Part shown: piece by piece, positions 10,153 through 55,759 of the stretch
Layout of the letters: every line of letters starts with the position of its first letter
Numbering within the stretch: the first letter of the stretch is position 1
Notes under the pieces: generated by a model
Databases searched by the model: none
Told to the model about the DNA's origin: nothing
The model's input: only the letters and a program-made list of their open reading frames with translations
Made by a program: the position numbers and the translations under genes
NCBI RefSeq assembly: GCF_030867095.1
Contig: NC_081824.1
Location: forward strand, 115,204,162-115,268,161
Direction of reading: 5' to 3'
DNA: 64,000 nt
DNA from: Alligator mississippiensis
Lineage: Eukaryota; Chordata; Crocodylia; Alligatoridae

Positions 10153-10740
10153 TTAAAATAAATTAATTGTTAAACAATCATGCTTCAGTATTTTATAGCT
10201 CACAATCATTTTCATTGCCTTTCTGAACCAAGGATAAAGAAGAGAGTAAATCAAGGGATTCGTGGCAGATAAACCAAACAATAATGTTGAAGAAAAGGAG
10301 TAAAATTAGCAAGTCAAAGGAAGCATCAGCTATGAGGGTAGTTAAATAAAGTGATCAGAATATGAAGCAAGCAGTCATGGGTATTCCCAACATTTTAGCA
10401 GCTTCTTTCTCTTCCTTACTTTGCCATTTTAATTATCAAAAGACTGCATATTATTAGTCTATCTTTCTACTTAGCAATTTAGCTACATTAAAGATGTTTC
10501 TGTAAAGTGCTATCACTGAAAAAAGAGTATAAAGAATCTGATTCAAGAAAAGTTGACAGCTGCCTATACATGAAAGGGCATTCACTATAATCTGTAGCTC
10601 TTGCTAACTGGTCTCACTGTAAACTACTGAAAAACTGTACAGTGAGGAGAGTGTCTGTGCAGTAGTGGCAAATATGGATTATACTAAATATGGTGATAGT
10701 ATGTCCCAATTTGAATAAACATATTTCCAATTTTTGTGGG
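10153..10740 (-). pseudogene. TAAR pseudogene, 3' half only
   Basis: The minus strand encodes the C-terminal half of a TAAR receptor, from about TM4 (IFATTAQTLSSLYSFSVVY) through TM5, the third intracellular loop, TM6 and TM7 ([20 protein letters not shown]) to a stop at 10153-10155. Several stops and frame changes interrupt it, and the TM4 tryptophan is replaced. About 150 N-terminal residues are missing: the similarity fades near 10740 at the junction with the next duplication unit, where a SINE-like repeat sits. Flanking 3' DNA matches that of the loci at 20915 and 31822, so it is a tandem duplicate and not a retrocopy. It is too broken to appear as an open frame, but the homology is clear. 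Confidence 0.88.
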
Positions 10741-20914: not shown

Positions 20915-21934
20915 TCATTTCTGAACTAAATTCATTGTTGAACAATCCTGCCTCAGGATTTTAAAGCTCACAATCACTTCTGCTTTTTGAGACCAAGGAT
21001 AAAAAAGAGAGTAAATCAAAGGATCCATGGCAGAGTTAGCATAAGTAAACTACACCATAACATCAAAGAAAAGGGTTGAATTATAAAGTTAAATAAGGCA
21101 TCTATTATTAGCATCATAAAATAAGGTGACCAGAATATGAAGAAAGCAATCATGGCTATGCCCAGAGTTGTAGCAGCCTTTTCCTCTCTCTTGCTAACTC
21201 TATCACTATAATTATCAGAGGACTGTGTTTTGTTGCTCACACTCTCTGTCATTCTAGCTTGTCTTTTAGCCACACTGAAGATCCTGCTGTACAGTGCTAT
21301 CAAGGTAAAGAATGGTATGAAACAAAGGAGGGAGGATATAAACACCTAGGTCTCATTGAACACAATTTGACAGCTTCCTATGCAAGTAAAAGCTTGTACT
21401 AAATCTTGTAGTCTTTCATCACTTGCACTAGCAAAGACAACAGAAAAACTGTACATGAATGGAAATGTCCAGGCAGCAGCTGCAAACATTTTTGAAACTG
21501 GCATGGTGAACTTCAAGGAGTAAACTAAAAGACCAGTAACAGCAACATACCGATCAATGGAGACAAAACATAAATGAAATATCAATGCTAGGCAAAAAGA
21601 CACATCTAAAGAACTGTGGACTCTACAGAAAGTTTCCCCAAAGTACCAACAAGTTTCAACAGATCTTATAGTGCTGAAGGGCAGCACTGACAAACCCAAG
21701 CAAAAATCAGCACAGGCCAAGGAGGCAACTAAAAAATGTGTAGGAGTGAAGCTGTTTGAAATAAGCAAATACGATCATGACCATGACATTCCCACTCAGA
21801 GTAAGAAAAGTCAGAAAATCAAGCACAACATACAAAATAGACTGGATTCCCAAAGGCCATGGAGTTTTATGGCAGGACCCATTGATGTTCTCAAAGCAGT
21901 ACTGTATTTCGTTTTGAAGAAGTGCTGAACTCAT
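20915..21934 (-). pseudogene. TAAR pseudogene, full length
   Basis: A class A receptor pseudogene that is colinear with the intact gene at 31822-32847. It begins MSSALLQNEIQYC with an N-glycosylation site in NGSC. It keeps D in TM2, the TM3 amine-binding aspartate (HSSLDVSFC), SIDRY after TM3, and the TAAR TM7 region. Reading is broken at three points that I can see: loss of two bases at the TM1-TM2 loop (LHSPTN is disrupted near 21750), a tryptophan to TAG change at the top of TM5 (21346-21348, NET*VFISS), and a one-base loss before TM7 near 21070. The 5' and 3' flanks match those of the 31822 gene closely. The middle third matches the plus-strand 41820 gene better than its tandem neighbour (see findings). 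Confidence 0.92.
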
Positions 21935-23512: not shown

Positions 23513-25500
23513 ATTCATAGATTCATAGAAGTTAGGGTCGGAAGGGACCTCAATAGATCATCGAGTCCGACCCCCTGCATAAGCAGGAAAGAGTGCTGGG
23601 TCTAGATGACCCCAGCTAGATGGATATCCAACCTCCTCTTGAAGACCCCCAGGGTAGGGGAGAGCACCACCTCCCTTGGGAGCCCATTCCAGACCTTGGC
23701 CACTCTAACTGTGAAGAAGTTCTTCCTAATGTCCAGTCTAAATCTGCTCTCTGCTAGCTTGTGGCCATTATTTCTTGTAACCCCCGGGGGCGCCTTGGTG
23801 AATAAAACCTCACCAATTCCCTTCTGTGCCCCCCTGATGAACTTATAGGCAGCCACAAGGTCGCCTCTCAACCTTCTCTTGCGGAGGCTGAAAAGGTCCA
23901 GGTTCTCTAGTCTCTCCTCGTAGGGCTTGGTCTGCAGGACCTTAACCATATGAGTGGCCCTTCTCTGGACCCTCTCCAGGTTATCTGCATCCCTCTTGAA
24001 GTGCGGTGCCCAGAATTGCACGCAGCACTCCAACTGCGGTCTGACCAGTGCCTGATACAGGGGAAGTATCATCTCTTTGGATCTATTCGTCCTGCATCTG
24101 CTGATGCACGATAAAGTGCCATTAGCTTTTCTGATGGCTTCATCACACTGCCGACTCATGTTCATCTTGGAGTCCACTAGAACTCCAAGATCCCTTTCCA
24201 CTTCCGTGCCACCCAGCAGGTCATTTCCTAGGCAGTAGGTGTGCTGGACATTTTTCCTCCCTAGGTGCAGCACTTTGCATTTCTCCTTGTTGAATTGCAT
24301 TCTGTTGTTTTCTGCCCACTTGTCCAACCTGTCCAGGTCTGCTTGCAGCTGTTCCCTGCCCTCCGGCATGTCCACTTCTCCCCATAGCTTTGTGTCATCT
24401 GCAAACTTGGACAGAGTACACTTCACTCCCTCCTCCAAGTCGCTGATGAAGACATTAAAGAGTATTGGTCCAAGGACTGAGCCCTGCGGGACCTCACTGC
24501 CCACACCCTTCCAGATCAAGACCGACCCATCCACCACGACTCTCTGGGTGCGACCCTCTAGCCAATTTGCCACCCACCAGACTGTGTAGTCATCCAAGTC
24601 ACAGCCTCTTAACTTGTTCACCAGTATGGGGTGGGATACCGTATCGAAGGCCTTCCTGAAGTCTTAGTATATGACATCCACCCCTACTCCTGTGTCCAGG
24701 CGTTTTGTAACCTGGTCATAAAAAGATACTAGATTAGTCAGGCATGATCTGCCTGCTACGAACCCGTGCTGGTTTCCCCTCAGCATAATTTGTCCTGCCG
24801 GGCTCTCACAAATGTGAGCCTTGATAATTTTCTCAAAGACTTTGCCAAGGATGGAGGTGAGACTGACTGGCCTATAGTTGCCCGGGTCCTTCTTCCTCCC
24901 CTTCTTGAAAATGGGGACCACATTGGCCCTTTTCCAGTCCTCCGGGACTTGGCCCATGCGCCACGAGCGTTCAAATATTCCTGCCAGTGGCTGTGCAATG
25001 ACGTCGGCCAGTGCCTTCAGTACCCTCAGATGGAGCTCATCCAGGCCTGCCGACTTAAAGGCATCCAGTTCTTCCAAGTGACTCTGCACCATCTCAGGGT
25101 CTATGCACGGTAGTCTGGTGCCCTGCTGCTGCCTCTCTACAACCCCAGTGAGAGACTTGTCCTGCCCCTCTCTTAGGAACGCTGAGGCAAAGAACTCATT
25201 AAGGAGTTCAGCCTTGTCCCCCCTGTCCATCACCAATTGCTTCTGCCCATTTAGTAGGGGTCCTATTCCTCCCTGGGTCTTCCTTTTACTCCCTATATAT
25301 CTAAAAAACAATTTCTTGTTGTCCTTTACTTGGGATGCCATCCTCAGCTCCATGGTAGCTTTGGCCCGTCTAACTGCCTCCCTACAAGCGCAAGCAGAGG
25401 AGGTATACTCCTCTTTGGTGATCTCTCCCTGTTTCCACTTTTTATGTGCTCCCCTTTTGGCCCATAGGCTGCCCTGGATTTCTCCCAAACCTCAAACTAA
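23513..25500 (-). mobile_element. CR1 LINE, 5'-truncated, nearly intact reverse transcriptase
   Basis: The minus strand reads through one frame of about 630 codons (25488 to 23602) broken by a single TAA at 24664-24666, where a leucine codon is usual before DFRKAFDTVSH. In order it holds the linker after the endonuclease (WKQGEITKEEY), the reverse transcriptase start (PEDWKRANVVPIFKKG), the FDTVSH motif, VPQGSVLGPILFN and the catalytic FADD, then a C-terminal region ending in HLAGVI. The 3' end has the CR1 terminal repeat (ATTCATAG twice, near 23513-23528). The endonuclease and ORF1 are missing, as usual for a truncated insertion. It sits inside duplication unit C and is absent from units A and B, so it is younger than the duplications. 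It is the least damaged CR1 in the window. Confidence 0.95.
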
Positions 25501-41819: not shown

Positions 41820-42853
41820 ATGAACTCAACTTTTTATGAAAAGGAAGATGTGCAATACTGCTATGAGAAAATGAATGGATCCTGCTATAAAACACCATGG
41901 TCTTCTGGGATCCAAGGAACTTTGTATGTTGTACTTGGTTTTCTCACAATTCTTACAGTAGCAGGAAACCTGATGGTAATTATTTCAATTGCCTATTTCA
42001 AACAGCTTCACTCTCCTACAAATTTTTTAATTGCCTCCTTGGCTTGTGCTGACTTTTGCTTGGGTTTGACAGTGCTGCCTTTCAGCACTATAAGATCTGT
42101 TGAGACCTGCTGGTATTTTGGGGAAACTTTCTGTAGAGTCCACAGTTCTTTAGATGTGTCTTTTTGCCTAGCATCAATATTTCATTTATGTGTCATCTCC
42201 TTCGATCGGTATGTTGCTGTTATTGATCTTTTAGTTTACCCCTTGAAGTTCACCATGCCTGTTTCAAGAATGTTTGCAGCTGCTGCCTGGACATTTTCAT
42301 TAATCTACAGTTTTTCTGTAGTTTTTACTGGAGCTAATGATGAAGGGCTACAAGAATTAGTGAAAGCACTCTCCTGTGTAGGAAGCTGTCAGCTTGTTTT
42401 CAATAAGACTTGGGTATTCATTTCATCCCTCCTTTATTTCATATCTTTCTTTACAATGATAATACTTAACAGCAAGATTTTCAGTGTAGCCAAAAAGCAA
42501 GCTAAAAGGATAGAGAGTGTGAGCAGCAAAACACAGTCCTCCGATAATTACAATAACCAAGTGGGGGAAAAGAGAGAGAGAAGCTGCTAAAACACTGGGC
42601 ATAGCTGTGATTGCTTTCCTCATATTCTGGTCACCATATTTTATAACAGTCATAATTGATGCCTTATTTGAGTTTCTAATTCCACCTCTTGCCTTTGATA
42701 TTATGGTTTGGGTTGCTTATTCTAACTCTGCCATTAACCCCTTGATTTATTCTTTCTTTTATCCCTGGTTTCGAAAAGCAATGAAAGTGATTGTGAGTTG
42801 CAAAAAGTTTGTGACTGACTGACTGCTCAACAATGAATTTGTTTTCTGACTGA
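41820..42853 (+). pseudogene. TAAR with two small frame-breaking changes
   Basis: The sequence from MNSTFYEKEDVQYC covers TM1-TM5 without interruption, including NGSC, D of TM2, the amine-binding aspartate (HSSLDVSFC), FDRY, and the ECL2 CVGSC. In the third intracellular loop a G5 run (42563-42567) carries one base more than the sister gene, which has GGG followed by A5, and the frame then stops at 42588-42590. The other frame resumes with [14 protein letters not shown] (TM6) and the TAAR signature [16 protein letters not shown]. Near the end, GACT is present three times in a row (from 42813) and a stop follows at 42820-42822, where relatives read on into DCSTMNL; the extended stop would be 42851-42853. 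An upstream ATG at 41775 is in frame, but the start at 41820 aligns with the sister gene. Everything else looks preserved, so the loss is recent, polymorphic or an assembly error. Confidence 0.88.
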
Positions 42854-54334: not shown

Positions 54335-54641
54335 TATAAAATGCATGCCTCCTCCAGTGTTCTCTTCACATCTCCATTTACACTGATATGTGATGTATCT
54401 GAGAAGGAGACGCATTAGGAAATTCAAAATAAGTAGGAAAGAATTCTAAAATGGCATCTCAATAAACCGAGTTATTTCTTTTTTCTAGTTACTTTGTTTG
54501 TTATCTGTGTTTAGCTTGTAAAAGCTGCTGAGAGAAAGATCTTACCTATTAGAACTCCTTTAAGTTTCTGTTACATTTTGTTTCTGTGTTCAAAATGATA
54601 CTAGGAAGATATTCTATTAACGTTGTAATTTTCTTTCTCAG
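54335..54641 (+). promoter_or_regulatory. Putative TATA box and 5' splice region of the 54725 TAAR
   Basis: TATAAAA at 54335-54341 aligns with the TATAAAT ahead of the 41820 gene, followed by the conserved 'tccagtgttct'. The acceptor 'tttctttctcag' ends at 54641 and leaves 83 bases before the ATG. At the place of the sister gene's donor (AAG/GTAAGG) this locus reads AAGGAGACG (GA at 54417-54418), so that donor is gone. Another donor or an unspliced leader would be needed. Confidence 0.5.
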
Positions 54642-54724: not shown

Positions 54725-55759
54725 ATGATGGACTCCGCTTTTCCTGAAAAGGAAGATTTGCAGTACTGTTTTGAGGACATAAATGGATCTTGTTACAAAA
54801 TAACACGATCTCCTGCACTCCGAGTAGTTTTGTACTTTGTTCTTGGCTTTCTCACAATTCTTACCGTAGGAGGAAACCTGATGGTAATTATTTCAATTAC
54901 TTACTTCAAACAGCTTCACACTCCTACAAACTTTTTGATTGCATCTTTGGCCTATGCTGATTTTAGCTTAGGTCTCAGTGTACTGCCTTTCAGCGCTGTC
55001 AGATCCATTGAAACCTGCTGGCTCTTTGGGGAAACCTTCTGTAGATTTCACAGTTGCTTAGTTGCATTGTTTTGTTATGCATCAATATTTAACTTGTGTT
55101 TCATCTCAGTTGATCGGTTTGTTGCTGTCAATGACCCTCTGATTTATCCTCTCAGGTTCACAGTGCCAGTGTCTGGACTGTTCATAGCTGTGGCCTGGGC
55201 ACTTTCCATACTGTACAGTTTTTCAGTCTTCTACACTGGGGCTAATGATGAAGGGGTAGAAGAATCAGAGAATGCTCTCCCCTGTTCAGGGAAATGTCAA
55301 ATTACTTTCAATAAGACCTGGGTGTTCATATCCTCTCTCCTTTATTTCATACCTTTTCTGACAATGATAGTCCTTTACAGCAAAATCTTCCAAGTAGCTA
55401 AACAGCAAGCTCGAATGATAGAGAGCATGAGCAACAAAACGCAGTCCTCAGATAATTACAGTGACAGAGTGGGAAAAAGAGAGAGAAAGGCTGCTAAAAC
55501 ACTAGGTATAGCTGTGGTTGCTTTCTTGGTATTCTGGGCACCTTATTGTATGTGTGTAATAACTGATACTTTCCTTGACTATGCAACTCCACCTTTTGTT
55601 GTTGACATTGTAAGTTGGCTTGCTTATTCAAACTCTGCCATTAATCCTTTGATTTACTCTTTCTTTTATGCTTGGTTTCGTAAAGCAATGAAAGTGATTG
55701 TGAGCTGTAAAATAATAATGTATGATTGCTCAGCAATGAATTTATTGTCAGAATGGTAA
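54725..55759 (+). CDS. TAAR: Trace amine-associated receptor, TAAR6-9 group, intact but without the TM3 aspartate
   Basis: A single-exon, seven-transmembrane receptor of 344 residues from the ATG at 54725 (a second ATG follows at 54728 and aligns with the sister gene's start). It has NGSC near residue 20, D79 of TM2, C106 of TM3, DRF at 130-132, C187/C191 in the second loop, W271 in FWAP of TM6, Y301 (7.43) and the TAAR signature [16 protein letters not shown] (303-318). The third loop and TM6 entry [15 protein letters not shown] are typical. The key oddity is at position 3.32: relatives read CLDASFC or SLDVSFC, but here it is CLVALFC, with V113 in place of the aspartate that binds the ligand amine. 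TM5 has I202 and S203 at 5.42/5.43, so there is no compensating aspartate. It also reads YADFS where relatives read CADFC in TM2. The frame is otherwise clean, which suggests selection for another ligand class, or very recent loss of constraint. Confidence 0.95.
   Translation: MMDSAFPEKEDLQYCFEDINGSCYKITRSPALRVVLYFVLGFLTILTVGGNLMVIISITYFKQLHTPTNFLIASLAYADFSLGLSVLPFSAVRSIETCWLFGETFCRFHSCLVALFCYASIFNLCFISVDRFVAVNDPLIYPLRFTVPVSGLFIAVAWALSILYSFSVFYTGANDEGVEESENALPCSGKCQITFNKTWVFISSLLYFIPFLTMIVLYSKIFQVAKQQARMIESMSNKTQSSDNYSDRVGKRERKAAKTLGIAVVAFLVFWAPYCMCVITDTFLDYATPPFVVDIVSWLAYSNSAINPLIYSFFYAWFRKAMKVIVSCKIIMYDCSAMNLLSEW

What the first reader, a model, noticed from the sequence alone, without database searches (positions are those of the whole stretch)
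54725..55759. Intact TAAR that has lost the amine-binding aspartate of TM3
At position 3.32 this receptor reads valine (V113 in CLVALFC), while the three other loci that cover this region keep aspartate. TM5 offers no aspartate at 5.42/5.43 either, the site used by some fish and mammalian TAARs. The frame, disulfide cysteines, DRF, W6.48 and TAAR TM7 signature are all intact over 344 residues. It may sense something other than a simple amine. Loss of D3.32 is known in some teleost TAAR clades. I do not know of it in this group of tetrapod TAARs.
Basis: partly seen in the sequence, partly recalled or inferred. Interest (0 to 1): 0.8.

Follow-up and report, generated by a model that had tools for sequence, protein, structure and literature searches.

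The report
Alligator smell receptor missing amine anchor
One American alligator smell receptor of the trace-amine family has replaced the acidic residue that normally grips amine odours with a greasy one while otherwise looking like a working receptor; it is a single-gene variation at a spot that also changes in turtles and mammals.

Summary
Window 54725-55759 (+) encodes an intact 344-residue trace amine-associated receptor (TAAR) of Alligator mississippiensis with GTT (Val113) at 3.32. The ten other alligator TAAR loci read keep Asp, including the sister copy L005, a pseudogene. No acid sits at 5.42/5.43. It is a reptilian clade II TAAR. A codon model gives its branch w=0.285 (background 0.286) and rejects w=1 (p=1.9e-6), so most of its history was under purifying selection.

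The claim that 3.32 loss is unknown in this tetrapod group needs correcting. Glu3.32 in rodent TAAR7s and positive selection at 3.32 are published. Among 185 listed relatives I count D138, E39, N6, V1, G1. Valine is the only hydrophobic case other than a gar Gly.

Against a settled new function: six changes at conserved sites, the most of 42 non-pseudogene sauropsid rows; a neighbour with an open frame but an altered DRY; pseudogene branches also reject w=1; and no readable A. sinensis orthologue. Best reading: a retained receptor that no longer uses the canonical amine salt bridge. Ligand unknown; recent decay not excluded.

The parts
54725..55759 (+). Intact clade II TAAR gene (L001), 344 codons plus stop
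   Evidence: ORF; 100% identical to an NCBI A. mississippiensis TAAR record; 7tm_1 match; best solved relatives mTAAR9 and mTAAR7f; model matches mTAAR9 best
55061..55063 (+). Codon 113 (position 3.32), GTT = Val, in place of GAT = Asp in the paralogues
54393..54432 (+). 5' coding exon of the NCBI gene model (isoform X2); intron 54433-54641, GT...AG, 209 bases. Whether it is used is not shown
   Evidence: the spliced reading reproduces the start of P0002
31825..32847 (-). Intact clade II TAAR paralogue (L003), Asp3.32; A. sinensis counterpart P0040 is 98.5% identical
41820..42819 (+). TAAR pseudogene (L004), frameshift near 42570, Asp3.32
20918..21934 (-). TAAR pseudogene (L008), frameshifts and two stops, Asp3.32
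10159..10678 (-). TAAR pseudogene fragment without TM1-TM3

Best explanation
This is an alligator-lineage duplicate of the reptilian clade II TAARs, kept as a working chemoreceptor for most of its history, that lost the amine counter-ion by one base change (GAT to GTT) after splitting from its sister L005. Shown: intact frame, loss found only in this copy among the alligator loci read, purifying selection averaged over the branch, and disulfide, DRF, W6.48 and NPxxY motifs kept. Inferred: it still couples to Gs/Golf in olfactory neurons, can no longer form the Asp3.32-ammonium bridge, lacks the fish substitute Asp5.42, and is tuned either to neutral or weakly basic odorants in a pocket without charge, or to amines held by other contacts (Y274 6.51, Y301 7.43, D294 7.36). 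Raised basal signalling is possible because Tyr7.43 has lost its partner.
For: w=0.285 on the L001 branch against 0.286 on the other non-pseudogene branches, w=1 rejected at p=1.9e-6; three smaller sets give w 0.23-0.31, each rejecting w=1. Neutral drift over the whole branch would leave about 8.7 stops, with no open frame in 4000 runs (stops only, started from the present sequence). C3.36, Y3.37, W6.48, Y6.51 and Y7.43 kept, no acid gained at the pocket positions tabulated. mTAAR9 D3.32A, D3.32N and D3.32E lost amine responses (PMC8546428, passages); mTAAR7f D127A raised basal activity, lowered Emax, with similar pEC50 (PMC11364543, passages). Turtle Asn3.32 proteins of 342 and 341 residues, from Chrysemys and Mauremys, form one clade (100/99; names), so an uncharged 3.32 can persist in intact receptors.
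Against: Pseudogene branches also reject w=1, so the test does not cover the most recent part of the branch. L001 has six changes at columns at least 97% conserved, more than the other 41 non-pseudogene sauropsid rows (next 4), though one (Y132F) is shared with L005; relative to its divergence the excess is marginal (6 of 83 against 62 of 1903, p=0.054). No expression or ligand data. No orthologue from another crocodilian could be read. A neutral-ligand tuning has no direct support.
Confidence: 0.55

Rival explanations
1. The gene is a recently disabled or relaxing TAAR whose frame is not yet broken; V113 is one of the first damaging changes in a cluster with rapid gene birth and death.
For: Three of the six clade II alligator loci used are disrupted (L004, L005, L008), and a fourth fragment lies at 10159-10678. 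The open neighbour L002 reads DQY (CAG) where its A. sinensis counterpart P0003 reads DRY. L001 has the most changes at conserved columns among 42 non-pseudogene sauropsid rows. The rate test cannot see the last part of the branch.
Against: w on L001 equals background. Neutral drift of 0.067 per site, about a quarter of the branch, would leave an open frame in only 6% of runs, counting stops alone. Only about 5% of the branch postdates the A. sinensis split, judged by L002 (0.0088 against 0.16), so a change placed at random is probably older.
Confidence: 0.28
2. It is still an amine receptor: cation-pi and other contacts (Y6.51, Y7.43) and D7.36 replace the salt bridge, so tuning changed little.
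For: mTAAR7f D127A kept a similar pEC50 (PMC11364543, passages). Glu7.36 helps bind polyamines in lamprey sTAAR365 (PMC8546428, passages), and L001 has D294 at 7.36.
Against: Charge-neutral 3.32 mutants of mTAAR9 and sTAAR365 lost amine responses. D7.36 is shared with 35 of 38 turtle rows, so it is no new compensation.
Confidence: 0.12
3. V113 is an assembly error or a rare allele.
For: One base decides it; the identical NCBI record P0002 may rest on the same data, and its independence was not shown.
Against: The rest of the frame is clean, and the record's longest contig (486,595,084 bases) differs in length from the assembly's C1 (486,593,759), so it is at least another version.
Confidence: 0.05

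Closest known systems
Clade II TAARs (mammal TAAR5-9; the reptile subfamily TAARR1 of PMC8890504)
   Same: Placement in the tree, TM7 motif, single coding exon for the receptor body, 7TM motifs, chromosomal cluster
   Different: Val at 3.32; nearly all listed relatives have Asp or Glu (177 of 185)
Glu3.32 TAAR7s of rodents (mouse TAAR7a, 7d; rat 7a, 7c)
   Same: Clade II TAARs with a changed 3.32 (PMC4695389, PMC8546428, passages)
   Different: Glu keeps the charge; Val does not
Asn3.32 clade II proteins of turtles and mammals (P0020, P0034, P0123; P0059, P0153, P0185)
   Same: No charge at 3.32
   Different: Polar Asn; the three turtle ones have Glu right after the ECL2 cysteine, L001 has Ser
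Teleost clade III TAARs
   Same: Asp3.32 lost
   Different: 84 of the 85 zebrafish TAARs without Asp3.32 keep Asp5.42 (PMC4695389, passages); L001 lacks both, like zebrafish TAAR19f in that paper
Mouse TAAR9 (PDB 8itf, 8iw9)
   Same: Best sequence and fold match; Y6.51 and Y7.43 shared
   Different: mTAAR9 needs Asp3.32 for its amine responses

Membership tests
TAAR family | TAAR TM7 fingerprint NSxxNPxx(Y/H)xxx(Y/F)xWF (wording recalled) | tested here: met
   [16 protein letters not shown], residues 303-318
TAAR family | Groups with TAARs rather than other amine receptors | tested here: met
   Best solved relatives are TAAR9, TAAR7f, TAAR13, TAAR1; tree place inside reptile clade II with support 98/92 or more at the enclosing forks
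TAAR family | Lies in the chromosomal TAAR cluster | tested here: met
   Eleven TAAR-like loci at about 115.22-115.37 Mb of C1, named as TAARs by similarity only
Canonical amine-sensing TAAR | Asp3.32 | tested here: not met
   Val113, GTT
Clade III-type (non-classical) amine-sensing TAAR | Asp5.42 | tested here: not met
   I202, S203 at 5.42/5.43
Functional olfactory TAAR | Open frame under purifying selection | tested here: met
   w=0.285, w=1 rejected; covers the branch on average, not its end
Functional olfactory TAAR | Expression in olfactory neurons and odorant response | not testable with these tools
   No reads or assays at hand; an NCBI model with a 5' exon hints at transcripts but proves none
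TAAR pseudogene | Disrupted frame, or dN/dS near 1 on its branch | tested here: not met
TAAR pseudogene | Disrupted or decaying orthologues in close relatives | tested here: inconclusive
   No separate orthologue cluster listed; an A. sinensis one could be hidden in the 90% cluster P0002

The most novel reading that the evidence does not exclude
Clade II TAARs of tetrapods repeatedly abandon the amine salt bridge (Val in alligator, Asn in turtles and in mammals), in turtles together with another acid, Glu beside the ECL2 disulfide cysteine. This would be a second evolutionary exit from canonical amine recognition, separate from fish clade III, and the alligator gene would be a TAAR tuned to non-amine odorants.
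Probability: 0.2. Interest if true: 0.6.

Novelty: new variant of a known kind. Interest (0 to 1): 0.36.

Why it matters
TAARs are treated as amine sensors because of Asp3.32. A retained tetrapod TAAR with neither Asp3.32 nor Asp5.42 is a natural test of whether TAARs can detect other chemicals. The assay exists: PMC8890504 (passages) cloned TAARs of alligator among others and tested receptors on 97 amines; its abstract names lamprey, shark, ray-finned fish and mammal receptors as deorphaned, not reptile ones. Whether this gene was in that set could not be seen, since supplements could not be opened.

Tried and rejected
Compensating acid in the pocket: not found for L001. None of the tabulated pocket positions gained an acid; D6.58 and D7.36 are shared by most relatives. 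ECL2 net charge of L001 is -3, but so is that of five other rows. E182 is shared with L005 and occurs in one of 138 Asp3.32 proteins; it lies in a loop modelled with pLDDT below 50, so I do not count it as a replacement.

Loss inherited from an Asn or Glu ancestor: rejected, since L005 and the other alligator copies have Asp.

Orthologue in A. sinensis, crocodiles or gharial: no listed row is named for a crocodile or gharial, and no A. sinensis row other than P0003 and P0040 is listed; the three searches list 120 of 967, 120 of 3600 and 120 of 1456 hits, names are cut short and some rows have none. A. sinensis P0003 and P0040 are 98.5% identical to alligator L002 and L003, so an L001 orthologue would be hidden inside the 90% cluster of P0002 (5 members), whose members cannot be read. 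This is the main gap.

Dating in years: not attempted.

Literature on reptile TAAR 3.32: listings show no paper whose title or abstract start treats it; only open-licence papers are held. One search was for basal activity.

tRNA scan: none in the window.

Full report
Identity of the window. The protein is 100% identical to an Alligator mississippiensis record, 'trace amine-associated receptor 9-like isoform X2'. The window lies at C1:115204162-115268161 of its assembly, in a cluster of eleven TAAR-like loci between about 115.22 and 115.37 Mb, L001-L011, of which L004, L005 and L008 are disrupted.

The observation. Codon 113 is GTT (55061-55063). Nine other alligator TAAR loci have GAT or GAC there, and L010 reads Asp in its printed ORF. 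Mouse TAAR9 and TAAR7f have Asp at the aligned column. Position 5.43, counted from P5.50 and matched to fish Asp5.42 in clade II (PMC4695389 and PMC8890504, passages), is Ser203. The finding is correct as described.

Where it belongs. In a tree of 64 rows (41 sauropsid protein rows including L001 itself, 18 mammal rows, five further alligator loci), L001 pairs with L005 at 100/99 inside the reptile clade II group. L005, about 20 kb downstream, is frameshifted, keeps Asp3.32 and shares the F of DRF with L001, so that change is older than the loss of Asp. The AlphaFold model has mean pLDDT 72 (174-192 in ECL2 below 50) and matches mTAAR9 best.

How unusual. Over 185 proteins (listed hits of three searches, P0002 dropped as the same gene), 3.32 is D in 138, E in 39, N in 6, V in 1, G in 1; the G is a gar protein labelled TA13C with Asp at the aligned TM5 column. 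In the sauropsid set of 41 it is D 32, E 6, N 2, V 1; a third turtle N row, P0123, came with the second search and is short (302 residues). On the tree the Asp label needs at least five changes that well-supported branches force. So 3.32 is a labile site in clade II, as published in part: Glu3.32 in two mouse and two rat TAAR7s and positive selection at 3.32 in TAAR7. PMC8890504 says that almost all clade I and II TAARs have Asp3.32 and mentions a few lacking it or Asp5.42 (passages). A hydrophobic Val is the new element in this sample. Each search lists only its best 120 hits, as clusters at 90% identity, so rare variants inside clusters are invisible.

Is it functional? Three smaller sets give w 0.28, 0.31 and 0.23, each rejecting w=1. 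Neutral drift over the whole branch would leave about 8.7 stops and no open frame in 4000 runs. Against this: the pseudogene tips also reject w=1, so the test speaks for most of the branch, not its end. L001 carries V95I, Y100L, H123N, Y132F, F286Y and P316A at columns at least 97% conserved, more than any other of 42 non-pseudogene sauropsid rows (next 4; L005 has 5 and L008 10); Y132F is shared with L005. Relative to its divergence the excess is marginal (p=0.054; third of 42 by ratio). The open neighbour L002 reads DQY (CAG) where A. sinensis P0003 reads DRY, so open frames in this cluster can hide lesions.

Mechanism. In mTAAR7f the ligand touches 3.32, 3.36, 3.37, 5.42, 6.48, 6.51, 7.39 and 7.42, and Asp3.32 also bonds Tyr7.43; D127A raised basal activity, lowered Emax and left pEC50 similar (PMC11364543, passages). 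In mTAAR9, D3.32A, N and E abolished responses (PMC8546428, passages). L001 keeps C3.36, Y3.37, W6.48, Y6.51, A7.42 and Y7.43 but has V3.32, S7.39, C6.52 and V7.35; L005 also differs from the common residues at 7.39, 6.52 and 7.35, so the pocket had begun to change before Asp was lost. From this I infer loss of canonical amine recognition, a pocket without charge, and possibly raised basal signalling. The ligand is unknown. That the Val form is older than the split of the two alligator species is inferred, not shown: about 95% if the change fell at random on the branch (lengths 0.0088 for L002 and 0.16 for L001).

Verdict. A real and correctly read substitution in an otherwise ordinary, long-constrained clade II TAAR; a new variant of a known kind, directly testable, with recent decay as the serious rival.

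Noticed in passing
L002 (G000:C1:115288369-115289397, +; about 20 kb past the window's end): Clade II TAAR with an open frame whose DRY arginine is Gln (CAG) in this assembly, while its A. sinensis counterpart P0003 (98.5% identical) has Arg. Possibly a fresh loss of G-protein coupling in A. mississippiensis.
   Followed up: partly
Turtle proteins P0020, P0034, P0123 (no window coordinates): The three turtle proteins with Asn3.32 all have Glu right after the ECL2 disulfide cysteine, against 6 of 138 Asp3.32 proteins. The three probably form one clade (two of them do), so this is one event. Some Asp3.32 turtle proteins (P0036, P0134) have the Glu too: perhaps a relocated counter-ion gained before Asp was lost.
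   Followed up: partly
L009 and L010 (G000:C1:115307264-115308268 and 115323885-115324898, -): Two nearly identical open TAARs about 16 kb apart, probably a recent duplication; they look like TAAR4 (recalled).
   Followed up: no
window 23602-25488 (-): Two reverse-transcriptase ORFs of a LINE remnant, CR1-like by recall; RVT_1 E=9.9e-14 for one, and E=1.8e-6, just under the Pfam cut-off, for the other.
   Followed up: partly
window 54393-54641 (+): NCBI's isoform X2 splices a 40-base coding exon to the TAAR frame over a 209-base GT-AG intron, giving a longer N-terminus. Not known to be used.
   Followed up: partly
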